A DNA stretch of 24,741 nucleotides from a virus. The position numbers and the translations under genes were made by a program. The stretch is taken from the IMG/VR virus record IMGVR_UViG_3300042860_001172, positions 1 to 24,741 of that record; one strand, written 5' to 3'. The notes below the pieces were generated by a model that did no database searches, was not told where the DNA came from, and worked only from the letters and a program-made list of their open reading frames with translations. This document shows positions 2,765-18,800 of the stretch, in pieces (the first letter of the stretch is position 1; each line of letters begins with the position of its first letter).

Positions 2765-2786
2765 TGCGCGAAAGGTGCGCGAATGG
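2765..2786 (+). repeat. Right arm-type repeat unit overlapping the integrase start
   Basis: Two TGCGCGAA octamers start at 2765 and 2776, and the unit ends with the integrase ATG (2783-2785). A further inverted copy (TTCGCGCA) is at 2733-2740. Binding here would cover the integrase translation start and leader, which suggests self-regulation. This is inferred from position only. Confidence 0.65.
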
Positions 2787-3895
2787 CAAAGCAGTGGATC
2801 GCTGATCGAAAGGTGCCGGGCCTTGGCCTGATGGTGCTGCCGTCAGGCGTGCGCACCTGGTATCTGCGCTACCGGGAGCCGAGCGGCAAGCAGCAGCACC
2901 ACCGCATCGGCCGGGCCGACTCGGTGAACGTCACCACCGCGCGCGAGCAGGCCCACAAGATCCTTGCGGCCGTCGCCACCGGCCAGGCACCCACCAGCGC
3001 CCGCCAGGAGCGCCGCAGGGCGCCGACCGTTGCTCAGCTGCTGGAGCGCATCAAGCGCGAGCACTGGCGCAAGCTGAGGCCTGGCAGCGTGGTGAACAAC
3101 GAGCTGATCTGGCGCCGCCACCTGCTGCCCGAGTTTGGCGCCTTGAAGGTGTCAGAGCTCCAGCAGCGCCACGTGGCGGACTGGTTCCACCGCGCCAGCC
3201 TCGAGCGGCCGGTGCGTGCCAATCGCTGCCTGGAGGTGCTTAGCAAGGCGATGAATCTGGCCGAGCTGTGGGAGCTGCGGCCCGCCGGTTCCAACCCTTG
3301 CGTGCGGCTCAATGCCAACAGCGAACGCAAGCGCCGGCGATACCTGACCAGGGAGGAGCTCAAGCGGCTGCTGGCCGCATTGGACACGTTCGCCGAGGCC
3401 GGTGTGCGGTGGCGGTTTGCGCAGCTGATCCGGCTGCTGCTGGTCACCGGCTGCCGCGTGCGGGAGGTGATGTGCGCGCGATGGGACTGGCTCGATCTCG
3501 ATGCAGCGGTGCTGCTGGTGCCGGCCGAGGCCCACAAGACCGGACAGGATGGCAACGATCGCAAAGTGCATCTACCACCCGCGGCCGTTCAGATCCTACG
3601 AGAGCTGCGGCAGCGGTCCAACAGCGCCTGGGTGATCGCCGGCGATGATGACAGCCACCTGGTCGGCTACTGGCGGATGTGGGACGACCTGCTGGCCGCG
3701 GCCGAGATCCGCAACCTGCGGGTGCATGACCTGCGCCACAACTTCGCCAGCCTCGGTGTGAGCGCCGGGCTGAGCCTGCCGCAGATCGGCGGCCTGCTGG
3801 GCCATGCCAGCCCGCAGACCACCCAGCGGTATGCGCACCTGATCGACGAGGCTGCAGCGGCCGCCGCGGCCAAGGTGGCGGCGCTGGTGGGCTAG
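2783..3895 (+). CDS. int: Tyrosine-family site-specific integrase
   Basis: This 370-aa protein is a phage integrase. Residues 1-75 look like an arm-binding/DUF4102-like N-domain (GLGLMVLPSGVRTWYLRY). Residues 80-175 are the SAM-like core-binding domain, and about 185-370 the catalytic domain. Catalytic residues are visible: R225 in TGCRVREV, a basic residue around K252/K261, H315 and R318 in HDLRHNFAS, H341 in LLGHAS, and the nucleophile Y350 in TTQRYAHL. It should cut and rejoin attP and a host tRNA attB. ATG 2783 is the natural start, with AAAGGT a little upstream. It reads toward the late operon and its TAG overlaps the stop of the dCTP deaminase-like gene. Confidence 0.95.
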   Translation: MAKQWIADRKVPGLGLMVLPSGVRTWYLRYREPSGKQQHHRIGRADSVNVTTAREQAHKILAAVATGQAPTSARQERRRAPTVAQLLERIKREHWRKLRPGSVVNNELIWRRHLLPEFGALKVSELQQRHVADWFHRASLERPVRANRCLEVLSKAMNLAELWELRPAGSNPCVRLNANSERKRRRYLTREELKRLLAALDTFAEAGVRWRFAQLIRLLLVTGCRVREVMCARWDWLDLDAAVLLVPAEAHKTGQDGNDRKVHLPPAAVQILRELRQRSNSAWVIAGDDDSHLVGYWRMWDDLLAAAEIRNLRVHDLRHNFASLGVSAGLSLPQIGGLLGHASPQTTQRYAHLIDEAAAAAAAKVAALVG

Positions 3896-7056: not shown

Positions 7057-9081
7057 TTATGCGAGTTGCTGTTTGAGCTGCTCAACTTCGGCCGAGAGCT
7101 GCTGCACGGCCTTGATCAGCGGTGCAATCAGCTCCTCGTAGCCAATAGAGAGAACGTCTTCGCCGCCTTTGAGGCTGTGGTCTTGATAGCCGCCAAAATC
7201 GACCCCGGTCGCATCACAGGCCGCTTTCACCTCTTGGGCGATTAAGCCGTGATGAAAACGTGAACGCTTCTTGGAGCCATCGTGCTGAAGGTTGTCGAGG
7301 GCATTTGCCTCGCGCCACTCTTGCAGGGCTTGGCTATGAGCAGCACGCTCTTCTTTCGTCGCATCATCTGCCGGCGGTTCAGGGGGTGTTGAACGATAGT
7401 CGTCCCGCAAGTCCCAGCGGAAATCGACCGGGCGCAGAGCGTTGATGAAATCGAGGCCAAGTGCCGTGTCTTGAATGTCTGCCTTATCTCTGGCGTCTGA
7501 ACGGTTTTGGACGGTGCCGTAGACGTAGGTGGTCGTGCTGGCGTTGCCTAGCTGAATCTGGTTGCTTCCTGTAACGGTCGCCTGATAGCCGAACATCGAC
7601 GTGTTGGTATAGGCAGCGCCGCCGACTGTTCCAGTGCCAACGGCAGTGTTGTAATCGCCAGTCGTGACTGCGCTGAGCGACTGCTCGCCAATAGCAGTGT
7701 TTCCAGCACCAGTTGTATTCAACTGTGCAGCAAACCGACCAATGAAAACGTTGTTGAAGCCAGTGCTTAGGACGCTTCCCGAGCTGACGCCAATCGAGAC
7801 GTTTTGATAGCCGGTGGTAATGTTTCCTGATGCGTTATTGCCAACGGCAACGTTGTTGCTTCCGGTGATAGCAGTGCCAGACCCAACCATGGCATCGTTG
7901 CCAATGGCGGTGTTGCCGCTGCCGGTGGTGATCCCGCTGCCGGCTCGCCTGCCAACAGCGACCGCGGATGCGCCCGTCGTCGCCGACCCAAGGGCTGCTG
8001 AACCAATAGCGATGTTGTAGAGACCGGTAGAGGATGGTGCCGACAGCGCCTGGTGACCGATGGCAACACTGTCGTTGCCGGTGTGCTGCTGGCCGGCCTG
8101 CGTGCCGATTGCAATGGTCCGGTTGACTCCGGTAGAAACGCCAATCGCTTGATCGCCAATGGCAACATTGTCGTCTCCAGTCGTGAGCGATGTAAGCGCT
8201 CCGTTTCCAATGGCAGTGTTGTCGCTGCCAGTTGAGTATTGGAGAGCCTGAACGCCGATCGCGGTGTTGTAGTTGCCCGTGACGTTTGTATAAAGAGCAA
8301 ACGGCCCTATTGCAGTATTATAAAAACCGGTTGTGTTTGAGTAGAGGGCCTGCGCTCCGATGGCAGTTTGACGGCGTCCCGTTGTATTTGACGTGAGCGC
8401 ATAATTGCCAAACGCAGTGTTGAAGTTGCCTGATGCCCATGTCAGCGTTGAAGAGCTGTGCTGCTTGGGAATGTAAGTGTTAGCCGCAAGTGCCCCGTAG
8501 CCGTAGGCCTCGTTAGCTGGTTGATCGTCAGTGCTGGCGGGTGCAAGGGTCAGCAGGCCGTTGCGAACGCCCCAGCCATTTGGGACAGTCGTCACCCGGT
8601 AGCTCTTGCCTGCTAAGTCAATAGAGGTGTTTGAGAACGCGGCACGCACGGCAGCCATTGCCGAGGTGTCATCGGTGCTGTTGTTACCAACTGCGCCAAA
8701 ATCAGCAGGACTTACTGTGTCCTTGAGCTTGGCATCTACCGTGCGAGCACTGCCGCCAGACTGAGTGAAACTCAGTTTGCTGGCGACGATGCCTGCGCTG
8801 GCATTGACATCGGCGTTGACGATGCTGCCGCTGCCCGCTGGGATCAGACCCAAGTTCGCGGTGTCCAGCTGGCCGATCGTGAGCCAGGCGTTGTTGGCGC
8901 TGTTGCGCTGCTTCAGCGTTGCCGGGCTGCTGCTGGTGTCAACCCAGTATTGATAGGCGAAGGTGGTGCTCGGGGCCGATGCGCCGCTGTTGCCGCTGAC
9001 GATCGCGGCCAGCGCGTTGTTCAGGTCAGCACGGAACGCCTGGCCGGACTGGTTGGCGATGTTGTAGTCGTGCTGAGCCAT
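7057..9081 (-). CDS. Tail fibre with YadA-like repeats and S74 self-cleaving chaperone
   Basis: This 674-aa fibre begins MAQHDYNIANQSGQAFRADL, a phage N-terminal attachment-type segment. VSPADFGAVGNNSTDDTSAM (123-142) matches the start of pectate-lyase-like tailspikes. About 16 short repeats, (N)TAIG..AL...TTG, at 218-495 resemble the heads of trimeric autotransporter adhesins. The C-terminus (about 525-674) is an intramolecular chaperone peptidase S74: S528 in NRSDARDK with K533 as the likely Ser-Lys pair, GLIAQEV near 612-618 and a final coiled coil (IKAVQQLSAEVEQLKQQLA). In this family the chaperone folds the trimer and then cuts itself off before S528. It overlaps J by TGATG. GC is markedly lower than in its neighbours. 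Confidence 0.9.
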   Translation of the reverse strand: MAQHDYNIANQSGQAFRADLNNALAAIVSGNSGASAPSTTFAYQYWVDTSSSPATLKQRNSANNAWLTIGQLDTANLGLIPAGSGSIVNADVNASAGIVASKLSFTQSGGSARTVDAKLKDTVSPADFGAVGNNSTDDTSAMAAVRAAFSNTSIDLAGKSYRVTTVPNGWGVRNGLLTLAPASTDDQPANEAYGYGALAANTYIPKQHSSSTLTWASGNFNTAFGNYALTSNTTGRRQTAIGAQALYSNTTGFYNTAIGPFALYTNVTGNYNTAIGVQALQYSTGSDNTAIGNGALTSLTTGDDNVAIGDQAIGVSTGVNRTIAIGTQAGQQHTGNDSVAIGHQALSAPSSTGLYNIAIGSAALGSATTGASAVAVGRRAGSGITTGSGNTAIGNDAMVGSGTAITGSNNVAVGNNASGNITTGYQNVSIGVSSGSVLSTGFNNVFIGRFAAQLNTTGAGNTAIGEQSLSAVTTGDYNTAVGTGTVGGAAYTNTSMFGYQATVTGSNQIQLGNASTTTYVYGTVQNRSDARDKADIQDTALGLDFINALRPVDFRWDLRDDYRSTPPEPPADDATKEERAAHSQALQEWREANALDNLQHDGSKKRSRFHHGLIAQEVKAACDATGVDFGGYQDHSLKGGEDVLSIGYEELIAPLIKAVQQLSAEVEQLKQQLA
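7597..8430 (-). repeat. About 16 YadA-head-like repeats in the S74 fibre
   Basis: Units of roughly 16-20 residues keep the core TAIG or VAIG, a hydrophobic/Ala position and a closing TTG/STG. DNA units share GCCAATGGC-type words. Such repeats form a left-handed beta-roll in trimeric adhesins; copy number is likely to vary between relatives. Confidence 0.8.
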
Positions 9082-12000
9082 CAGACGATCTCCCGGCCGT
9101 AGCCGATTGCAGTGTAGGTGAACTGGCGGCTCACGGCGGTCCCGCCACTGTTCCTAAAGGTTACCTGTAATCCCGTGCGCGTCACGGAGCCGATCGTGAA
9201 GTAGTCAGCGGTGCCCATGTCGTAGCCCGTCACTCCAATGCTAGGGGGTTGGTAGAAAGCCTCGGCGAAGGTCACCGAATAGGTGCCGGCGCCACTGGTC
9301 AGCGTGGCCGACTGCTCGGTGCGCTGCTGCAGCTCCACCATGCAGCCGAGCTCGTCGATCAGGATGTTGACGTTGGGGTCGTTGCTGGTGGCGATCGTCT
9401 TGAACTGGAAGCCGCGGCCGCGCACGATCGCGTTGGCGAACTCGCGCCAGGTGCTCCAGGTGGGGGTGCCGGCCGGGTTGTCAGTGGTGCTGCGCACGTA
9501 GAGGCGCGCGTTCACCGAGTCGATGTTGCCGTCGTCGATCTCGGACCAGCTGTCGATCAGCTCGACCTTCTCATCCCAGAGCCCGGTCAGCAGGATCGCG
9601 CGGGTCAGGAAGCGCCGCTGCAAGTTGATGTCGAACACGCCGCCCATGTCCAACGTCGAGCCGAACTCGTACTCGCCGTATTCCGGTGGCAGCGGGCTGT
9701 CGATCGTGGTCAGGCCGTCCCAGTTGCCGGCCTGGCCTTCGTTGAGGATCTGGTCGCCATCCTCAAGCAGCAGGGCATCACCGTCTTCCTGCGCCAGGTT
9801 GTCGTTGCCAGCGCCGGGCGGGGCGAGGTCATCAACCAGCGGGCCGGTGCTGATCACCAGGCCGTCCAGCTCCTCGTTGTAGAACATGTCCACGACGTTG
9901 CCCGAGAACGGCGGCGTCTCCTGATCTTCCGCGTAGGTCTGCACCAGCAGGCGCGGCAGCGGCGTCGGCAGGTCGGCCACGATCAGAGTGGCGTTGGGAG
10001 ACCGGCGCCCCCCGTCATCCTCGAACTTGAGCAGGTAGGTGCCCTCAAGCAGCGGCACCTGCTTCTGGGTCTGGTTGCCGGAAGCGGCCGGCACGATCTC
10101 GACGGTGTCTTCCCAGATGGCGCCGACCAAGAGCGGCGTGTGGCGGATCAGCACCTTGCCGCCGATCTTGACGTCGAGCTCGGTTGAGGCCGTCCAGCTG
10201 ATGATCGCGCTGGCCTGGTCGATCGGCACCAGCGAGACGCCGGTCACATCAGCCGGCGAGGCCGTCTTGCCGAAGACGTTGAATGTGAGCTTGGCCGGCA
10301 ACACCGACGAGCGCAGCCCGGCGTTGACGCTGTAGACCTCGATCTCGTAGCGGCCTGGCGTGGTGTCGAAGATCTCGAAATCAGGCCGCTGCTGCGTGGA
10401 CGTTGACCAGTTGCCGTTCTGCAGCCGCCAGCGGTAGCGGTACTGGTTGACGCCGACCACCGGCTGCCAGCTCACGACCAGCTTGGACAGCACCCGGCCG
10501 TTGCTCTCGTAGAGCGCCTCAACGGCCTGCAGGTTGATGGGTGCTTCGGGGATGACGTTGAGGTCGGTGATGTCGCGCTGCGCCAGCGGCCGGCCGCGCT
10601 CGATGTAGTCGTACTTCGAGGCGTTGTAGGCGAGCGCCGTGATCTGGTACTGCGCCTGATCCTGCTCGGCCACGCTGAGCACCCGCCAGGTCGAGGCCTG
10701 GATGTTGGAGGTCTCGTAGACCCAGATGCTGTTCGCGTTCGGAGCAGACGGCAGCGCCGATGTGAGCGTGACCGTGGTTCCGACGATGCTGGCCACGCCG
10801 CGGCTCTGCACCGTGCCGTCGGACAGGATCACCGAAAGAGTGCCGCCTGATGGCGATAGGTCGGTGGCGTTGTCCACCGTGATCGTGGTGGTGGTTGCGG
10901 CTGCAATCCGGCCGCCGCGTCGAGCACCGGCGCGCATCGGGTCGGAGATGTTGATCACCTGGCCGGGGCGCACCAGCACGCCGGCGTCGATCGAAGCGGT
11001 GAACGTCACCACCTCGGATTCGTTCTGCTCGGAGTAGAGCAGCCATTCGCCGATGCGCGAAGCCTGCCCGCGGGAGGTGCAGGCAAAGGCCGACACCTCG
11101 GTGGTCACCACGCCGTACTTGGCGATTGCGGTCTGATCCTCGACAACCTCGTAGGCAATGTCGCGCAGGCTCAGGTCGAGGTAGCTGACCACTGCCACGG
11201 TCGGGCGTGTCTTGAGGCTGCCGCCCTGGTAGCTGAACCCGTCATCAGAGACGTTGGCCAGCGTGAACAGGTAGGCCGGGTCCGACGGCTTGTCCTGGCT
11301 GATGGTCAGCGCGCCGGTGCTCCAGTAGGGCATCGCCCGGAAGGTGGAGCACAGATCGTTGATGAGCTTGTAGGCCTCCTCGGCGGTCTGGATGTTGACG
11401 TTGCAGGAGAAGCGCGGCTCGGTGCCGCCAAAGCCGTTGGGCACCAGCTCGGAGGCGTACTGGCTCGCGGCATAGAACGCCCACTTGTCGAGCTGCGCGG
11501 CCTGGATGTGATCGCCCAAGCCGTAGCGGGTCGAGGTGAGCAGATCCCACAGGATCCAGGCGGGGTCTGAACACCACTGCGCAGCGCCGAAGCTGCCGTT
11601 CCAGATGCCGGCGTAGATCAACCGGCCGGTGGCCGCGTCCACCGTGGCGTTGTTCGGGATCCGAACCTTGATGCCGCGCACCAGGTAGGTGCGCGCCGGG
11701 ATCGAGTTGAACTGCTCGGCATCCACCCGCACCGCCACCAATGCGCTGTTGGGGTAGCGCAGCTTCGCGTAGGTGATCTCGGTGAAGCTTGACCAGCTGA
11801 AGGCATTGATCAGCTTTGCGCTGTTGCTATCCGCCGTGATCCGCGTCACCCGGATGTTCACCGGGAAGGCGCCTGACAGACTCACCAGGTAGTCGCGCTG
11901 ATACTGATCACCCGTGCGGCCAGCAATCGTGTCGTCGATCACGGTGCCGTAGCCGCCGCCGTTGTACTGCACGGCAATCTGCAGGCGCACATCGGTGCCC

Positions 12001-12869
12001 TCGATGTCGCCCTTGTCAGTGAACAGCTGCAGCGCTGGCACGGTGATCGTCACGCGCGCGGCGTTCACCGTGGTGTCGGTGATGCTGCGCACCACAGGCG
12101 TGGCCTGCTGCACCGTGACGTTGACGCCAACCTCGTTCTCAACGTCGGCAGCGATCGGCACGTAGCTCTGGTTCTGCGTGCCGTTGCGCGTGTAGACGAG
12201 AATGTTCTGGAAGTTGTAGCTGCCATCCGGGTTCTGCAGCGGCGTGTTGTCGATGAAGACCGACTTGTAGCCGTCTTTCAGGCCCTCGATCTCGCCTTCG
12301 CTGATGAGATCCACCAGGTTGGCGTATTGCGTCGAGTTGAGGCTGTCGGCTGCCTCAGTTGGCGTGTAGGTTTCGCCGCCGCCGCCGCCTTTGCCGCCGC
12401 CGCCACCACCGCCTGCGCCAGCAATGCCGAGGCCGAGGCCGGCGTTGTGAACCCGGATCCCACCGGCGATGAAGGTGTGATGCCCCTCGACGGTCAGGTT
12501 GTAGACGGTGCCGACGCAGAACTCAGCGCGGTCCACGATCGGGCGCAGGTGGCCGTTCTCATCCACCAGGCAATCGTCGGGGCCGAGCGTGTCGATCTCC
12601 ACGAAGGCGTTGAACTGGTTCAGCACCCAGTGGTTGGCCGTGGCATCCAAGACGGCACCGCCCCAGAGGCGGTAGCGGTTCACCCGCTCGCCTTCGTGCA
12701 CGTGCACCTTGAGGATCTTGGCGTGATGCAGCTTGCCGCGATCGTCGAAGCTGACCACTAGGTCGCCAGGCTGCAGCGCCTCGATCGGACGCTGCCCGTC
12801 AGGCGTGCGAATCAGCGTGTGCCCGAGAAAGCATCCGCCACCACCACCAGCACCGACGATCCTGCTCAT
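9081..12869 (-). CDS. J: Tail tip attachment protein J with an embedded Hint domain
   Basis: This 1262-aa protein is a lambda gpJ homologue: the central hub of the tail tip that contacts the host receptor. From about residue 165 it follows gpJ closely (EAADSLNSTQYANLVDLISE, YPNSALVAVRVDAEQF, ELVPNGFGGTEPRFSCNV, TSRGQASRIGEWL). Two fibronectin-III-like segments lie around 775-855 and 870-960. The last 200 residues are a beta-rich tip domain (SVTFAEAFYQPPSIGVTGYD) seen in many phage tail proteins. Uniquely, residues 13-142 are an intein-like Hint domain between glycine runs, listed separately. ATG overlaps the gpI stop (ATGA). The gene is very GC-rich, unlike the fibre gene that follows. Confidence 0.93.
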   Translation of the reverse strand: MSRIVGAGGGGGCFLGHTLIRTPDGQRPIEALQPGDLVVSFDDRGKLHHAKILKVHVHEGERVNRYRLWGGAVLDATANHWVLNQFNAFVEIDTLGPDDCLVDENGHLRPIVDRAEFCVGTVYNLTVEGHHTFIAGGIRVHNAGLGLGIAGAGGGGGGGKGGGGGETYTPTEAADSLNSTQYANLVDLISEGEIEGLKDGYKSVFIDNTPLQNPDGSYNFQNILVYTRNGTQNQSYVPIAADVENEVGVNVTVQQATPVVRSITDTTVNAARVTITVPALQLFTDKGDIEGTDVRLQIAVQYNGGGYGTVIDDTIAGRTGDQYQRDYLVSLSGAFPVNIRVTRITADSNSAKLINAFSWSSFTEITYAKLRYPNSALVAVRVDAEQFNSIPARTYLVRGIKVRIPNNATVDAATGRLIYAGIWNGSFGAAQWCSDPAWILWDLLTSTRYGLGDHIQAAQLDKWAFYAASQYASELVPNGFGGTEPRFSCNVNIQTAEEAYKLINDLCSTFRAMPYWSTGALTISQDKPSDPAYLFTLANVSDDGFSYQGGSLKTRPTVAVVSYLDLSLRDIAYEVVEDQTAIAKYGVVTTEVSAFACTSRGQASRIGEWLLYSEQNESEVVTFTASIDAGVLVRPGQVINISDPMRAGARRGGRIAAATTTTITVDNATDLSPSGGTLSVILSDGTVQSRGVASIVGTTVTLTSALPSAPNANSIWVYETSNIQASTWRVLSVAEQDQAQYQITALAYNASKYDYIERGRPLAQRDITDLNVIPEAPINLQAVEALYESNGRVLSKLVVSWQPVVGVNQYRYRWRLQNGNWSTSTQQRPDFEIFDTTPGRYEIEVYSVNAGLRSSVLPAKLTFNVFGKTASPADVTGVSLVPIDQASAIISWTASTELDVKIGGKVLIRHTPLLVGAIWEDTVEIVPAASGNQTQKQVPLLEGTYLLKFEDDGGRRSPNATLIVADLPTPLPRLLVQTYAEDQETPPFSGNVVDMFYNEELDGLVISTGPLVDDLAPPGAGNDNLAQEDGDALLLEDGDQILNEGQAGNWDGLTTIDSPLPPEYGEYEFGSTLDMGGVFDINLQRRFLTRAILLTGLWDEKVELIDSWSEIDDGNIDSVNARLYVRSTTDNPAGTPTWSTWREFANAIVRGRGFQFKTIATSNDPNVNILIDELGCMVELQQRTEQSATLTSGAGTYSVTFAEAFYQPPSIGVTGYDMGTADYFTIGSVTRTGLQVTFRNSGGTAVSRQFTYTAIGYGREIV
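12444..12833 (-). other. Hint (intein-like, BIL-type) domain inside J
   Basis: Residues 13-142 of J have the Hint fold signature. Cys13 starts block A (CFLGHTLIRTPDGQRPIEAL and QPGDLVVS). T77-x-x-H80 in DATANHW fits block B. VYNLTVEGHHTF and the ending VHN (141-142) fit blocks F and G. There is no homing-endonuclease insert. The residue after Asn142 is Ala, not Cys/Ser/Thr, so standard splicing is unlikely; bacterial intein-like domains use this arrangement for cleavage or alternative splicing. Gly runs on both sides (residues 7-12 and 152-165) make flexible junctions. Activity is inferred, not shown. Confidence 0.85.
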
Positions 12870-13441
12870 CCGGCCACCTGCACGGTGTCAATGCCGGCCG
12901 AGATCACCACCGAGCCCACAAGGGTCTCGCCGTAGACGATCGGCACAGGCAGGCCCTGGCGGCTGGTGTTCTGGATGCCTGAGAAGCTGTAGCTCTTGCG
13001 GGGATCTTTCACCGTGTCGCTGGTGGAGCCTGGCGGCACTGTTCGCGGCACGGGCGTGAGCAGCTGTGCAACGCCGCCGAGCACCAAGCTGGCGCCCACG
13101 CCGACCAGCAGCTGAACACCCAAGGCGCCAATGCCGGGCACCAGAAAGCCAATGGCAAGCAACGCCACGCCCGCAATGATCCGACCCACCGCGCCAGCGC
13201 CGGCGACGACGGGAACGATCTTGATTTCCTGCAGGCCGGCCGGGTCGTGCAGTTCATCCACGGCCAGGTCGTAGCTGCCCACGCTCACCCGGTAATGCTG
13301 GTCGGCCATGTGCTGCTCCAGCTGCGGGAAGTTGGCCAGCAGGAAGCGCACGGCCTCAGCCGCGCTGCTCACCTCGGCCTCAAACTTCCGGCGCTTCAGG
13401 AACTTTGCCAGGCGCCCGTAGATGCGGATCGTGCGCAACAT
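12866..13441 (-). CDS. I: Tail assembly protein I (lambda gpI family)
   Basis: With the start at ATG 13439-13441, overlapping the K stop (TGATG), the protein is 191 aa: [20 protein letters not shown] and on. Residues 1-85 form the ubiquitin-like domain of gpI (AAEAVRFLLANFPQLEQHM, YRVSVGSYDL). A long Gly/Ala/Val hydrophobic stretch at about 80-128 follows (AGAGAVGRIIAGVALLAIGF). The C-terminus (SYSFSGIQNTSRQGLPVPIV) is the conserved gpI tail. In lambda, gpI is needed for tail tip assembly but is absent from finished virions. The order K-I-J is as in lambda, and its TGA overlaps the J ATG. Confidence 0.9.
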   Translation of the reverse strand: MLRTIRIYGRLAKFLKRRKFEAEVSSAAEAVRFLLANFPQLEQHMADQHYRVSVGSYDLAVDELHDPAGLQEIKIVPVVAGAGAVGRIIAGVALLAIGFLVPGIGALGVQLLVGVGASLVLGGVAQLLTPVPRTVPPGSTSDTVKDPRKSYSFSGIQNTSRQGLPVPIVYGETLVGSVVISAGIDTVQVAG

Positions 13442-14166
13442 CACGCCAGCCCTAGCCTCCCTGCATCGTAATGGCGAAGCCTGCGCCCGGTGCATTTCAT
13501 CAGCCAGCCGCCGTAGAGGTCACGGCTGCTGAGCCGGCCGCGGATGTGATGGAGCACCAGCTGGTCGCCGATGTAGATGCCGACATGGTTCAGGCCCGGC
13601 CCGCTGATGCTCATCAGCACCGCATCGCCCGGTTGCAGCTCATCGTCTTCGTTGAGCTCGCGGAATCCGGCATCGCGCCAGAACCGATCGAACAGCGGCT
13701 CGGCCTCGAACTGCTCCGGCGTCAGTGGGCGCTCCCAGTCCGGCAGCTGCAGGCCTTGCTCGGCGTACCAGTCACGCGTCAGCGTCCAGCAGTCGGTGAG
13801 CCCCCACACCCATTCGCGACCGATCAGGGGCGCCTTGTAACCGGTGGGACGCAGCTCGGGACTCCATGCCTCGGTCTTCGGGTTGACGATCCACCAGGGG
13901 AGGCCGGTGCGCTCGATCGCCACCAGATCGGCTTGGCTGGGCTGCGGTGCAGTGCGCGGGTGGCTGTGAACCACCGCCATGATTTCGCCGGCATCCTCGG
14001 CCGCGGCGTAGTCGATCGGGTCGAGGATGAACTGCTCGACGCCGGCCGCCAGGTTGCGGCAGGGCCAGTAACGCTCGCGGCCCTTGACCACCACCAGCAG
14101 GCCGCAAGCCTCTCGGGGATCCTCGGCCTGGGCGTGCTCGAGTGCTGCTGTGCGCCAGTCGGTCAT
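13441..14166 (-). CDS. K: Tail tip protein K: JAMM and NlpC/P60 peptidases
   Basis: The start ATG 14164-14166 overlaps the HNH stop (ATGA) and gives 241 aa; the longer frame upstream is an Arg/Pro-rich shadow of the HNH gene. Residues 1-95 are a JAMM/Mov34 metalloprotease with E19, the HSHP motif H67/H69, S77 and D80 all present. Residues 115-235 are an NlpC/P60 cysteine peptidase with C126 (TDCWTL) and H194 (NHVGIYIG). gpK proteins with this layout act in tail tip assembly and may cut peptidoglycan stems during DNA entry. Both catalytic sets look intact. Confidence 0.9.
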
Positions 14167-14801
14167 GCCGCCCTCCGCTGCCGCCGCGATGGCATCGTCA
14201 GGGCCAGCGATGGGGCCATGCCGGAGTTCAGCCTGTTGATCACGGTAGACGGCTTGACACCTAGACGCCGGCACCATTCCGACATGTGCAGGACTTGGCC
14301 TTCGTGCTGGATCATGCGGTTGCTGCGCTTGTTGGCGCCCTGCTCTGCCGGTGTGGCCCACCTGCAGTTCTCTGGGCAGTAATCGCCGTTTGGGTCGATG
14401 CGGTCCAGTGAGCAACCCTCTGGCTTCTCTGCCATGTCTTCAGCAAAGTTCCGAACATCCATCCAGCGTTCGCAGACTTTTACTCCTCTGCCTCCGTACA
14501 GAGGAAAGTCCTTTGCTTCTGAATTGGTGCAGCGACGAATCATGCCCTGCCATACCTTCATGCCGGAGTAGCGGCTGAGGCCATGCGTCAGAAGCACCGG
14601 CGGCTTGCATTCGCGTTTTAGGCAGCCACAAGACTTCGTGCTGCCTGATTTGAGAACAGAGGTGAGCAAAGGCTTCACGACACCGCAATCGCACTGACAT
14701 TCCCAAGCAAGCTGCCGCCCGTAGATGCGCGTCTCGCTTTTGCCCAGCACGACAAGCCGCCCAAAACGCTGGCCTGTAAGGTCGATTGACTTGGCACCCA
14801 T
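14163..14801 (-). CDS. HNH endonuclease of the homing type, lodged between L and K
   Basis: ATG 14799-14801 has AGAGGAA about 11 bases upstream and gives 212 aa, [20 protein letters not shown]. Residues about 20-60 contain Cys pairs (CQCDCG, CGCLK) likely to hold zinc. The nuclease core follows ([41 protein letters not shown]) with Asp, Arg and Asn at the HNH positions. The C-terminus has a small helix-turn-helix-like DNA-binding part ([19 protein letters not shown]). In lambda-type phages L and K are adjacent, so this is an intruder. GC is about half in places (30 of 60 bases at 14461-14520), lower than L or K. It is likely a selfish free-standing endonuclease. Confidence 0.85.
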
Positions 14802-14829
14802 GAAATAAAAAGTTCCTCTGCCGATCATC

Positions 14830-15552
14830 TTACGTGAAGAACGTACCCACACCCGGATAGCTTCCGAACGGCAGCTCGGCAGTGGTGCCGAATCGTGCCT
14901 TGCAGCTGCTCAGCCGCTTGCCGCACACGTCAGCCGCAAGGGTGGCCACGGATTGATCGTTCTCGTTGAAGTAGCTGGTGCCCACGTAGCCGCACTCGGC
15001 TGAGCGGTACTTCCACTGGCAGATGTTGCTGATGCACTGGCGCTTTGGAGCCCGCACGCCGGCGAGATCGAAGGAAGCCGCCAGCTCGAACTCCACCACG
15101 TCGCGCGTCTCGGTGGACTTGCGGTCCACGTAGTAGATCTCACGCGGGAACTCGGCCGTCGGGTCCGGCGTGCCGTAGGGGTTCACGCTGCCGGGGAAGT
15201 TCACCGCGTCGAGGTAGCGGGCCAACGTGCGGATGCGTGTCACCTTGGCGCCCGAGAGGCCGTCAGGCAGGCTCAGCAGCAGCGCTGTGATGGTGCCCAA
15301 CACGTTACTGCAGCGGATTTTCGGCCGCGGCAGCGTGCCCTTGCCCTCATAGGTGAAGCCATCAGCCTCAACCGGAAACCGCAGATAGTTGTTGCCAGCC
15401 CAGACCACTTCGCCGTTGGCGTTGAGGTTGACGCCGGCGTGGAAGCGGTAGGTGTCGTTCACGCCGTGCTGCAGCGTGTTCAGCTCCAGCACGAACAGCT
15501 CGATGACAGCGCTGGGCGCAATCGCCTGAAGATCTGAGACGGGAACTGCCAT
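14830..15552 (-). CDS. L: Minor tail tip protein L (Fe-S cluster family)
   Basis: This 240-aa protein is a gpL homologue. The N-domain (1-160) holds VIELFVLELNTLQHGVN and WAGNNYLRFPVEADGF. The C-domain holds the conserved cysteines C173, C178, C187, C210 and C217 (RQCISNICQWKYRSAECGY, CGKRLSSCKARFG), followed by LPFGSYPG. In lambda gpL the C-domain binds a [4Fe-4S] cluster at the tail tip, and the same cysteine pattern is visible here. It starts just after gene M and is followed by 28 bases before the HNH start. Confidence 0.92.
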   Translation of the reverse strand: MAVPVSDLQAIAPSAVIELFVLELNTLQHGVNDTYRFHAGVNLNANGEVVWAGNNYLRFPVEADGFTYEGKGTLPRPKIRCSNVLGTITALLLSLPDGLSGAKVTRIRTLARYLDAVNFPGSVNPYGTPDPTAEFPREIYYVDRKSTETRDVVEFELAASFDLAGVRAPKRQCISNICQWKYRSAECGYVGTSYFNENDQSVATLAADVCGKRLSSCKARFGTTAELPFGSYPGVGTFFT

Positions 15553-15554
15553 CG

Positions 15555-15890
15555 CTACGGCTCAAACACCTGGCGGAACTTGGCGCGGATCGTGTTGAAG
15601 TTGCAGGAGCGCAAGGTCACCTGCCAGCTCTCGCACACGTACTTCCCGGCGCTGCCACGGGGTGGCGTCCAGTCGAAAGATTCCACGCCGCCGCGGGCGT
15701 CCAAGAACGCGGTGATCAGATCGCGCTCAGAATCGGTGCGCTCGCTGAAGGTTAGGTCCCACTCTTTCGGGTTGGTGTTCAGGCCGAAGCGGATGCGCTG
15801 CTCATAGCCGTCGCCGGCCTGGAACTTGCGCACCCGAGGCTGGCTGCTCTCGGTGGCCTCGAACGAGGGTGTATAGGTGAAGGTCGCCAT
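15555..15890 (-). CDS. M: Minor tail protein M
   Basis: This 111-aa protein matches the phage minor tail family of lambda gpM: MATFTYTPSFEATESSQPRV, GDGYEQRIRFGLNTNPKEWD, FSERTDSERDLITAFLDARG and ESFDWTPP are typical blocks. gpM binds the end of the tape measure/tube to form the tail tip ring. The length is normal. It starts 3 bases after the tape-measure stop, and L starts within 3 bases of its own stop. Confidence 0.92.
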   Translation of the reverse strand: MATFTYTPSFEATESSQPRVRKFQAGDGYEQRIRFGLNTNPKEWDLTFSERTDSERDLITAFLDARGGVESFDWTPPRGSAGKYVCESWQVTLRSCNFNTIRAKFRQVFEP

Positions 15891-15893
15891 GGG

Positions 15894-18800
15894 TTACGCC
15901 GCCAGGAGGCCGCCAGGCCGCTTCTGCTTGACCAATTCTGCCTGCACCGCCTGCGAGATCGCACGGCCCAGCTGCTCGCCGCGGCCTGCGTCGCCCTGCA
16001 CCTGGCTGCCCGAAGCGTCCACGTTCACCACCACGTTGGTGCCACCGCCGCCGCCCTTCATCGCCACGGGGATCCGCCGGCCATCAGGCAGGGGCACGTA
16101 GGCCTCGGGCATCGAGCCCTCGCCGAACATGGCCAGCTGCGGGCTGTTGGCGATGCCGCCGCCGGCGTACTTGCGCAGGGGCAGCGGGCCGTCGCTGGTC
16201 ATGATGCCGCCGTCGGCGAAGCCGAACGCCGAGGTGATGCCCTTCACGATCGGCGCCACCACCATGGTCTGCGCGATCTGCCGTGCGATGTCCTTCAGCA
16301 CGCCAGCCGCAATGCTGCGCAGGCTGTCGCCCCAGTTGTCGGTGCCGTCGATCAGCAGGTCGATCGCGCTGCCGATGCCGTTGCCGATCGAGTTGGCGAT
16401 GCCTTGCACCAGCTGCTTCTTCTCCTCGTAGGCCAGCTTGAGGCGCTCGAGCGCCTGCTCCTCGGTGTTGAGGCCATCGAGGATGCCGGGCTGAGAAGCC
16501 AGTCGGCCCTGCGTGGCCTTCAGGATGGCCTCGAGATTCGCACGCTGCTCGGCAGTGATGTCCTTGCTTTGCAGGTCCAGCACCAGCTGCTGCTGCAGCG
16601 CCTGCAGGCTGGCTGTTTCGGCCGTTGCGGCCCGCTCACGCTCTACGGTCTGCCGGGCCAGCTCAGGGCTCAGCCCACTGCGCTGCAGCTCCAGCAGCCG
16701 CTCGAAATCTTCCCGCTGCTCACGCACCGACTTGCGCTGTTGATCCAGCTGGCTGGTGATGGTGCCGAGCTCGGCCTGGCGGCTGTTGACCAGCTCACCG
16801 GCAGCCGCGGCCAGGCTGGCCGAGCGATTGGCGCCAGATGCTGCATCGAGCCGCCTGCCTGCCGCATCGATGCCGCTCATGCTGACGCCAGAAGCCGCTG
16901 CAGCAGCCGCACCGGGCCGGCCGATCAGCTGCCGTGCGCTGCCCACCGGACGGGCCGCAGAGCCGCCCTGCAGGTGCAGGAGCCGCATCCGGCCCTCGGG
17001 GGTGTCGATCTCCACCGCGTAGCCGCCGGCGCCGGTGAAGCCCAGATCACGCAGCAGGCTCGCGCCGCCCTTGAGGCTGACGCCGCTGCCGCTGGGCGTG
17101 CCGAAGTCGATGCCGGCATGGAAGTTGCGGCCGAACAGGCTGCGCGGGCCGTAGCCGCTGGTGACGCCAAAGCTAGAGGGGCTGCGGCCGTTCACGCTCA
17201 GGTAGCGATCGGCATCAGCAGCCGTGATCCGCCGGCCATCAGCCCAGCGCGCGTCAAGGTGCGGGCCGGTGCTCTGTCCCGTGCTGCCGGTGCGGGCGAT
17301 GATGCCGCCCGGTGCCATCGGAACGCCCATGGCACCAGCAGCGCCGCGCGCACCTTCGCGCATCTTGGCCGCCATCTTCTCGGCGCCGTCCACCAAGATG
17401 TCCCGGATCCCGCGCGCCACGTTCAGCTTGTAATCCTCGATCGTGCGCTCCAGCTGCACCTTCCGATCGGTGGCGCTTTGCTCGATCTGGATCTTCTGCT
17501 CGGTGAAGCGGCGGGTGGCTTCGTTCAGCCGCGCCTGCGTCTCCAGCGCATCGGTGCCAAGCCCAGCGCCGCGCAGCCGCTGCCGTTCGCGTTCAAACGC
17601 CGCATCCTGCTCCTGCGCCGCAATCCGCCGGCGGGTTTCGGCGGTGTCGCGCTCCAACTGCAGGCGCTGGTCGCCTAGGTCACGCTCAAGGTCGGCCGCG
17701 CGGCGGATCGACTGCTCGCGGAAGTCCGCCAGCCGCTTCTCCATGTCTTCGCGGATCTTCAGCTGATCGGCCAGGTTCTTCTTGGCCTTCTCCATCGCTG
17801 ACCGCTCTGCGGCAGATGCGCGCTCGCGGGCCGCCCGTTCCTGCGCCTCCCGCTGGCTGGCGCTGACCTGATCCGCCGGCCGCGTCTGCTGCTGCAGCAG
17901 CTCCTGGAAGATCTCCTGCTCGCGCTTCAGCAGGAACTGGTTTTTCGAGCCCTGCTGGAAGAAGGAGAACACCCCGAACTTGTCGTTGGTCTCGCGCGCC
18001 GCCTGTTGGTTGGCCTGCACCCGCAGCTGCGCACGCCGGCCTGCTTCGCCGTTGCCGGTGATACCGCCGAGCACGTCGCTGGCTTCCTTCAGTGCCCCGG
18101 TGAAGTTGCGCAGCAGGCTGATCGCCGTAGGCCCGAAGATCCGCGCCAGCTCGATGCCGAGCTCCTGCGTGGCAACCTGGAAATCCTTGATCGCCTGCTG
18201 GCCGGTCTGGAACTGTTCGTTGAGCTTGCCCAGCTGGGTGTCGTTGAGCTTGCCCAGCGCGCGCAGCACCACGTCGGTGGTGACCTTGCCCTCGGCAGCC
18301 AGATCTTTCAGCTCGCCGATCGTGACGCCGAGCTCTTTCGCGATCGCCTGCGCTGCCAGCGGCGCCTGCTCGCGGATCGCGCGCAGCTCTTCACCCTGCA
18401 GCACGCCGGAGGCCAGGCCCTGCTTCAGCTGGATCAGCGCGTTGCTGGTCTCCTGCGCCGTGGCGCCGCTGTTGCGGGCCGCAGCAGAGAAACCGATGAA
18501 GGCCTTCTCAAGCTCGGCCAGCGTGATGCCAGTGGGGCGCAGCGAGGCGTAGAGGCTGGCGAAGCTCTGCTCCGCTTCGGTGTTGCTCAGCCGCAGCGTC
18601 TTGGCAATGCGGTCGGTGGCTGCCAGCGCCGCGTTGTATTCGCCAAACTCATTGGCGAGCGCGCGCAGGCGCACCCGCGAGCTTTCTGCGTCCAGACCCA
18701 CCTGCCCGATGCCCTGCACGCCGCGCCTGGCCAGATCAGCGCCCTGCACCGCCAAAGCGCCCGCGACGCCACCTGCAGCGCCCGCCAGCAAGGCCCCGCC

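What the first reader, a model, noticed from the sequence alone, without database searches (positions are those of the whole stretch)
12444..12833. Intein-like Hint (BIL-type) domain inside the tail-tip protein J
Seen: residues 13-142 carry the Hint blocks (Cys13, TxxH80, VYNLTVEGHHTF, terminal His141-Asn142), flanked by glycine runs, in front of an otherwise complete gpJ. Known: bacterial intein-like domains end in His-Asn without a Cys/Ser/Thr at +1 and cleave or splice by alternative routes. Inference: processing would release a 12-residue N-terminal piece, or ligate the two Gly-rich flanks, leaving a normal gpJ N-terminus beginning AGLGLGIAG. Timing such processing to assembly at the tail hub would be a new use of a Hint domain in phage morphogenesis.
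Basis: partly seen in the sequence, partly recalled or inferred. Interest (0 to 1): 0.85.

Follow-up and report, generated by a model that had tools for sequence, protein, structure and literature searches.

The report
Self-cutting domain heads phage tail-tip protein
Many uncultured phages carry an intein-like domain, predicted to cut itself off, at the very front of the protein that tips their tails, together with what looks like a replacement front end for that protein, a use of such domains that I could not find described.

Summary
Residues 13-142 of gpJ (window 12444-12833, minus strand) are a complete Hint domain by sequence and predicted fold. It belongs to a family: one viral-contig scan gave 458 relatives, 80 kept. 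In 168 distinct sequences from 259 Hint-bearing loci, Cys1 and His-Asn are invariant and +1 is always Ala or Gly, never Cys/Ser/Thr. Sister phages lack it. In one pair (flanking DNA 97% and 94% identical) the insert is the Hint plus about 12 residues, AGLGLG.IAGAGG, in the glycine run at J's start. Those residues act like a replacement N-terminus: measured from Asn|Ala to a J landmark, Hint+ proteins are as long as empty J (medians 32 and 32), while spliced products (44) fall outside the empty range; a second J clade agrees broadly (34, 30, 48). I favour self-cleavage at Asn142|Ala143 over splicing. Assembly timing is unsupported: close relatives do without the domain, and it is exchanged separately from J. 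No chemistry or virion data.

The parts
9081..12869 (-). gpJ gene, 1262 aa, central tail fibre / tail-tip hub protein with N-terminal Hint cassette
12834..12869 (-). leader (residues 1-12, MSRIVGAGGGGG); like the start of J in empty alleles such as L227
12444..12833 (-). Hint domain (A-type-like bacterial intein-like domain), residues 13-142
12831..12833 (-). Cys13 = Hint Cys1 (nucleophile of the N-S acyl shift by family knowledge)
   Evidence: sequence; Cys in 168 of 168
12630..12641 (-). T77-x-x-H80 (block B, name recalled)
   Evidence: sequence; T77, N79, H80 invariant in the 30 rows
12471..12506 (-). VYNLTVEGHHTF, residues 122-133 (block F, name recalled)
   Evidence: sequence; N124 and H131 invariant in the 30 rows
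12444..12449 (-). His141-Asn142; predicted scissile bond Asn142|Ala143 at 12444/12443
   Evidence: sequence; HN 168 of 168, +1 Ala 147 / Gly 21
12408..12443 (-). replacement N-terminus AGLGLGIAGAGG (residues 143-154) that comes in with the Hint
12375..12407 (-). Gly-Lys run of J (residues 155-165), right-hand arm of the insertion site
   Evidence: lambda J residue 2 aligns at about this place (profile position 161)
9081..12374 (-). J body
12866..13441 (-). gpI (Ub-like plus plug protein by its literature), overlaps J's start by 4 bases; start codon at 13441 chosen by me inside ORF 12866-13495
   Evidence: phrog_32; role from passages of PMC1779556 and PMC10721106

Best explanation
A self-cleaving N-terminal cassette on gpJ. 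The cassette is a Hint domain of the bacterial intein-like kind followed by a roughly 12-residue replacement N-terminus, inserted in the glycine run just after J's start. After folding, the Hint domain cuts at Asn142|Ala143 by Asn cyclisation (helped by His141), and may also release the 12-residue leader through a thioester at Gly12-Cys13. J is left starting AGLGLGIAGAGGGGGGGKGGGG, of the length and with the motif of a native J N-terminus. Shown: sequence family, predicted fold, conserved catalytic residues, insertion site, replacement piece, length match, purifying selection, presence/absence and separate exchange. Inferred: that it cuts, where, and that cleavage rather than splicing is the main reaction. 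Why phages keep it is open; a semi-selfish exchangeable cassette fits the distribution better than an essential assembly timer.
For: Hint fold: 124 of 205 residues at pLDDT >= 90; VIA Z 21.9 to 1mi8 (133 aligned, 1.4 A), Z 20.6 to BIL 2lwy (132 aligned, 1.5 A). Of 168 distinct sequences Cys1 168, HN 168, -1 Gly 167, +1 Ala 147 or Gly 21, +2 Gly 168; J follows in 255 of 259 Hint loci, the other 4 too short to tell. Published BILs, lacking a +1 nucleophile, give predominantly cleaved products (PMC7664689, passages). Empty site and close pair L227/L043, 563/580 and 828/885 identical bases on the two sides. Length to a J landmark, first clade (loci): empty median 32 (26-35, n=22 distinct); Hint+ from Asn|Ala median 32 (n=28, 25 inside the empty range); spliced median 44, 0 of 28 inside. 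All Hint+ together, n=133: 32, 113 inside; spliced 46, 0 inside. Second clade: empty 30 (25-39, n=26), cleaved 34 (27-37, n=25, all inside), spliced 48 (43-52, 0 inside). dN/dS median 0.112 for the Hint, 0.271 for the start of the J body. No in-frame ATG/GTG/TTG from 30 codons before to 42 after the cut site in the window, so J does not simply start behind the Hint there.
Against: No biochemistry. In the second clade cleaved and empty lengths differ a little (medians 34 and 30, Mann-Whitney p 0.026). The leader keeps the IxGAGGG look, as if it also mattered; allele exchange with empty phages explains this, but so would splicing. A paper known to me only by its title in a reference list reports ligation by a BIL without nucleophilic side chains. 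Extra N-terminal domains on gpJ-like proteins occur (Jersey gp32, predicted model, PMC13243795, passages), so retention is possible. The loci are related and ranked by similarity, so the counts are not independent and decayed copies would be under-sampled.
Confidence: 0.62

Rival explanations
1. Protein splicing without a +1 nucleophile: the Hint leaves and the two glycine-rich flanks are joined.
For: The leader keeps a J-like motif in the lineages aligned; a BIL trans-splicing paper is cited by title in PMC7664689.
Against: +1 is Cys/Ser/Thr in 0 of 168. Splicing would add the leader (10-19 residues), putting 0 of 133 and 0 of 25 products within the empty length range, and would make the AGLGLG piece a pointless scar.
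Confidence: 0.18
2. Retained domain: the Hint stays on the virion tip as an exposed module, or cuts only on host contact.
For: J's N-terminus lies where lambda divides the single-chain hub, described as a focus of hypervariability with N-terminal additions to gpJ (PMC13243795, passages).
Against: Strict conservation of both catalytic ends and low dN/dS are more than a passive module needs.
Confidence: 0.08
3. Acyl transfer: the Gly12-Cys13 thioester passes the leader to another tail protein, or the freed Ala/Gly end is joined to one (for example the Ub-like gpI), in the manner of BUBL polyubiquitin loci.
For: Best Foldseek matches are the BIL2 of a BUBL locus; neighbouring genes are the Ub-like gpI and a JAB peptidase (PMC1779556 passages).
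Against: No Ub-like domain is fused to this Hint; genes K and L are found beside both kinds of J (209 Hint+ and 35 empty loci with both), so nothing ties them to the Hint.
Confidence: 0.05
4. Selfish mini-intein proper, spread by a homing nuclease and harmless because excised by splicing.
For: Patchy on the J tree (8 changes, at least 4 forced by well supported branches); Hint exchanged between phages; an HNH gene at 14163-14852.
Against: No endonuclease inside (130 residues); HNH relatives in 11 of 257 Hint+ and 2 of 43 empty loci, or 9 of 209 and 2 of 35 where both L and K are in view; brings a replacement N-terminus that a splicing intein would not need. The selfish part may be right, the intein part less so.
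Confidence: 0.07

Closest known systems
A-type bacterial intein-like (BIL) domains; solved example of a BIL: CthBIL4, PDB 2lwy
   Same: Hint fold (Z 20.6 to 2lwy); VYN in block F where the RecA intein has YD (alignments); conserved His-Asn end and no +1 nucleophile, as reviews describe A-type or BIL domains (PMC7765530, PMC7664689, passages)
   Different: Known ones are described in hypervariable regions of non-conserved bacterial proteins; this one sits at a fixed site at the front of a virion protein and carries a replacement N-terminus. The last residues of 2lwy itself were not compared
BIL2 of the Tetrahymena thermophila BUBL1 locus (PDB 6y75, 6tmm)
   Same: Best Foldseek match, E 1.2e-11, 23% identity
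   Different: There the domain lies between ubiquitin-like domains (PMC9200820, passages); here behind a 12-residue leader
Phage and bacterial mini-inteins (e.g. gp41-1, 6qaz; DnaB, 1mi8)
   Same: Fold (Z 20.1 and 21.9); Hint copies in phage helicase and terminase genes are 28-36% identical
   Different: No Cys/Ser/Thr at +1 here, and the insert is not traceless
lambda gpJ (PDB 8iyk and others)
   Same: Residues 2-44 align at profile positions 161-203 of the family
   Different: lambda J starts about where the Gly-Lys run behind the Hint is; no Hint
Ub-like gpI / JAB gpK tail-tip gene pair (Iyer et al. 2006, PMC1779556, passages)
   Same: Same operon; processing of the neighbour protein has been proposed there
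   Different: The word intein does not occur in that text

Membership tests
Hint superfamily | Hint horseshoe fold | tested here: met
   AF2 model and PDB matches; Pfam
A-type BIL | nucleophile (Cys) at position 1 (feature recalled) | tested here: met
   168 of 168 Cys
A-type BIL | conserved C-terminal His-Asn (PMC7765530, passage) | tested here: met
   168 of 168
A-type BIL | no nucleophilic +1 residue (PMC7664689, passage) | tested here: met
   +1 Ala 147, Gly 21 of 168
A-type BIL | lies in hypervariable regions of non-conserved bacterial proteins (PMC7765530, passage) | tested here: not met
   in front of J in 255 of 259 Hint loci, 4 too short to tell. A context feature, not a catalytic one; hence A-type-like, not filed as a plain member
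A-type BIL | autocleavage | not testable with these tools
   needs bench work
Canonical (class 1) intein | Cys/Ser/Thr at +1 | tested here: not met
   0 of 168
Canonical (class 1) intein | traceless insertion (removal restores the empty allele's protein) | tested here: not met
   insert holds about 12 extra residues; spliced length outside the empty range in 133 of 133 and 25 of 25
Hedgehog (Hog) domain | sterol-recognition region and cholesterol transfer | not tested
   the fold matches hedgehog too, but no such region was sought

The most novel reading that the evidence does not exclude
A new way of life for a Hint element: 'cut and replace' instead of 'splice'. The cassette enters the start of a gene, cuts itself and the old N-terminus off, and supplies a substitute N-terminus of the right length and motif, so it never needs a +1 nucleophile or a ligation step, and it moves between phages by recombination in the glycine-rich arms.
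Probability: 0.3. Interest if true: 0.78.

Novelty: new variant of a known kind. Interest (0 to 1): 0.62.

Why it matters
It puts an intein-like domain, predicted to process itself, into the hub protein of lambda-like tails in many uncultured phages (458 contig stretches from one seed, of which 80 were kept and read), with empty and occupied sister alleles at hand. That makes two questions testable: whether J's N-terminus must be freed for the tip to assemble, and whether BIL-type domains can live as exchangeable cassettes that cleave rather than splice. The natural +1 Ala/Gly series may also be useful for protein engineering.

Tried and rejected
HNH endonuclease as homing partner: not linked (11 of 257 Hint+, 2 of 43 empty; 9 of 209 and 2 of 35 where both L and K are in view). 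Co-variation of the motif on the two flanks (GAG/GSG/GSK): 80 of 128 match, 169 of 2000 shuffles as high, so not shown. Internal start behind the Hint: the window part was read one base out of frame and is void; redone (window: none from -30 to +42 codons; 254 loci: an ATG in codons -5 to +30 in 6, any of ATG/GTG/TTG in 74, so GTG or TTG starts are not excluded in those). Phage records (50,697): tblastn of three Hint seeds found copies at 28-36% identity in genes annotated as helicase, terminase, P-loop NTPase or hypothetical protein, and one record without annotation; the hypothetical ones were not opened, and none comes near the 44% of the most distant Hint-J locus that I recovered. Cellular genomes: 6 of 294 and 5 of 300 family genomes match, but over the full query only the seed genome itself each time. 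Near-DNA match of window 8000-18000 to phage records: none. J-seeded scan from L083: 11 loci, one Hint+ (the contig of L244), nine without a Hint, several of them with other N-termini, one not readable. In one search the script filed L374 as empty although its cut end shows a Hint tail; one search leaves it out. Rows dropped in the length test: Hint+ loci without an ATG within 24 codons or without the landmark, and duplicates. Searches gave no usable counts through my own regular expressions; one search stopped on a missing file.

Literature: ten searches of an open-licence library, seen as listings; passages read in PMC11101478, PMC7664689, PMC7765530, PMC3556154, PMC1779556, PMC9200820, PMC10721106, PMC13243795, PMC7468147, PMC6293099 and PMC3706429. 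I met no Hint domain in gpJ in these, but most subscription papers are not held and I read no paper whole, so novelty in print is provisional.

Full report
What is there. The window is a 24,741-base virus record. The tail genes run on the minus strand: tape measure, M, L, an HNH gene, K (JAB + NlpC/P60), I, J, then a tail spike. gpJ is 9081-12869 (-), 1262 aa.

Fold. An AlphaFold2 model of residues 1-205 from 30 aligned natural homologues has 124 residues at pLDDT >= 90; stretches under 50 are residues 1-10, 144-193 and 195-205. Foldseek's best PDB hits are the BIL2 domain of a Tetrahymena BUBL locus (E 1.2e-11), DnaB mini-inteins, gp41-1 and CthBIL4. VIA-align, a second look at Foldseek's own matches, gives Z 20.1-21.9 with 126-141 residues at 1.3-2.5 A for the top 21 rows, hedgehog included. 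In the viral library the best hit is 'Putative gp62' of an uncultured virus, 1016 residues, 37% identical over 166 columns; it may be a deposited relative, which I could not open.

A family, not a single case. One Hint-seeded scan of viral contigs gave 458 relatives (best 80 kept); other seeds gave 451 and 108 (80 kept each, overlapping). In the genome collection 13 loci came back. Four have the domain in front of J: a cyanobacterial MAG, a betaproteobacterial MAG, a 'Chloroflexi' MAG and an Oxalobacter genome (seen again). Of the other nine, weaker ones I read five (L086-L089, L093), all in other proteins. Of 319 loci then held, 259 carry the domain in frame (some are one contig fetched twice); three were cut at an end; the rest give 168 distinct Hint-plus-flank sequences. 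Cys1 is Cys in 168, the end is His-Asn in 168, -1 is Gly in 167 and Ser in one, +1 is Ala in 147 and Gly in 21, +2 is Gly in 168. A J landmark follows in 255 of 259, and 4 are too short to tell. The script found the domain by NHWVLN, a Phe after position 1 and an H.F block, not by Cys1, HN or the flanks, and the scan peptides do not cover Cys1 or HN. But the kept loci are the most similar ones, so decayed copies would be under-sampled, and many loci are near-copies. Identity to the window's stretch falls to 40-52% in the distant rows.

The empty site. A scan seeded with the J body alone, so blind to the Hint, gave 80 loci: 35 with the Hint, 43 without, 2 cut. Empty alleles begin like MSRIVGAGGGGGGGKGGGGG..RTPTEA. 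A second J-body scan, from another clade (seed L275), gave 35 occupied and 37 empty of 80 read by the script, the other 8 cut or not parsed. In the closest pair, L227 (empty) and L043 (occupied), 563 of 580 bases upstream and 828 of 885 downstream are identical; the occupied allele has, within the glycine run, the Hint plus AGLGLGAIAGAGG. Lambda J (8iyk) residue 2 aligns at profile position 161, about the Gly-Lys run behind the Hint, so what lies before it is extra to a lambda-type J.

Cleavage or splicing. If the Hint spliced, the mature protein would be leader + AGLGLG.. + J. If it only cut behind Asn142, it would start AGLGLG. I measured the distance to a fixed landmark in J. First clade (loci): empty median 32, range 26-35, n=22 distinct; Hint+ from Asn|Ala median 32, n=28, 25 inside the empty range; spliced median 44, 0 inside. 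All Hint+ together (n=133, overlapping the other sets): 32, range 25-41, 113 inside; spliced 46, 0 inside. Second clade: empty 30 (25-39, n=26), cleaved 34 (27-37, n=25, all inside), spliced 48 (43-52, none inside); there the cleaved and empty lengths differ a little (p 0.026). None of 43 and none of 37 empty alleles shows the AG[LI]G/GGHR/GGYR piece, so it belongs to the cassette. The simplest reading is that it replaces the N-terminus lost with the leader. This is inference from sequence, not a demonstration. It agrees with the lack of a +1 nucleophile, for which BILs are said to give predominantly cleaved products (PMC7664689, passages); a review says that A-type BILs can cleave their C-terminus through Asn but cannot ligate (PMC7765530, passages), while a paper title reports ligation by one BIL.

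Selection and exchange. Median dN/dS is 0.112 for the Hint (1437 pairs kept at dS 0.2-1.5 of 4000 drawn) and 0.271 for the start of the J body (113 kept of 700 drawn). GC3 of Hint and J in the same phage correlate (r 0.89, 242 loci, not independent), so the domain looks long resident. On a J tree of 62 distinct sequences (31 with, 31 without) the trait needs 8 changes, at least 4 forced by well supported branches; shuffled labels need 21 on average, so the trait is clustered but changes hands. The Hint moves apart from its neighbours: window against L171 is 95.5% in gpI (532/557), 76.4% and 86.2% in the two Hint halves (149/195, 168/195), 91.2% in the linker (73/80) and 92-95% in J; the other way round, L130 and L153 share 90.5% of Hint bases but 65.4% of J residues, part of which may only show that the Hint evolves more slowly. 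Ordinary phage mosaicism in conserved arms can do this; no nuclease is needed, and the HNH gene is not linked.

Function. Close relatives presumably build tails without the cassette, so it is not a general need. Once present it seems to have to work, since no copy without Cys1 or HN was met among the 168. Either J needs its N-terminus freed, or the cut end does something. In lambda the gpL, gpI and N-terminal gpJ chains together are said to correspond to the single-chain hub protein of T5 (PMC10721106, passages), and the place where the chain is divided is called a focus of hypervariability with N-terminal extensions on gpJ (PMC13243795, passages); that is where this domain sits. In some prophages TAPI is fused to TAPJ, and the JAB peptidase next door is thought to process the Ub-like TAPI (PMC1779556, passages), so processing at this place has precedent as an idea.

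Novelty. Hint domains, BILs and phage inteins are known, and so are BILs that cleave without a +1 nucleophile. What I did not find is a Hint domain at the start of gpJ, its spread in uncultured phages, and the cassette with its own replacement N-terminus. The literature library is partial, so this is provisional. I file it as a new variant of a known kind.

Noticed in passing
14163-14852 (-): HNH endonuclease gene between L and K (PHROG 374, E 5.5e-67); relatives in 11 of 257 Hint+ and 2 of 43 empty loci.
   Followed up: yes
7057-9081 (-): Tail spike gene after J carries a Peptidase_S74 (chaperone of endosialidase) domain, a family known (recalled) to cut itself off, so two neighbouring tail genes may both self-process.
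   Followed up: no
13441-14415 (-) and 12866-13495 (-): JAB + NlpC/P60 gpK next to gpI, as in the Ub-like/JAB tail-tip pair of PMC1779556.
   Followed up: partly
2783-3895 (+): Integrase (PHROG 1, E 7.6e-64), on the other strand from the tail genes: perhaps temperate.
   Followed up: no
window against L178 and L180, J bases 470-900 after the Hint start: J drops to about 68% identity in a 430-base stretch between much more similar parts: probably a recombined segment, reaching into the FNIII-A domain.
   Followed up: no
viral structure library: Hint-like folds in phage proteins named for fibronectin III and collagen repeats (A0A6J5NYB8, A0A6J5QMR4): Hint domains in other phage structural proteins may deserve a survey.
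   Followed up: no
G332, G356, G369, G408 (L331-L337): Genomes of the family of L082's genome hold other proteins that match the first part of this Hint (query residues 9-59).
   Followed up: no
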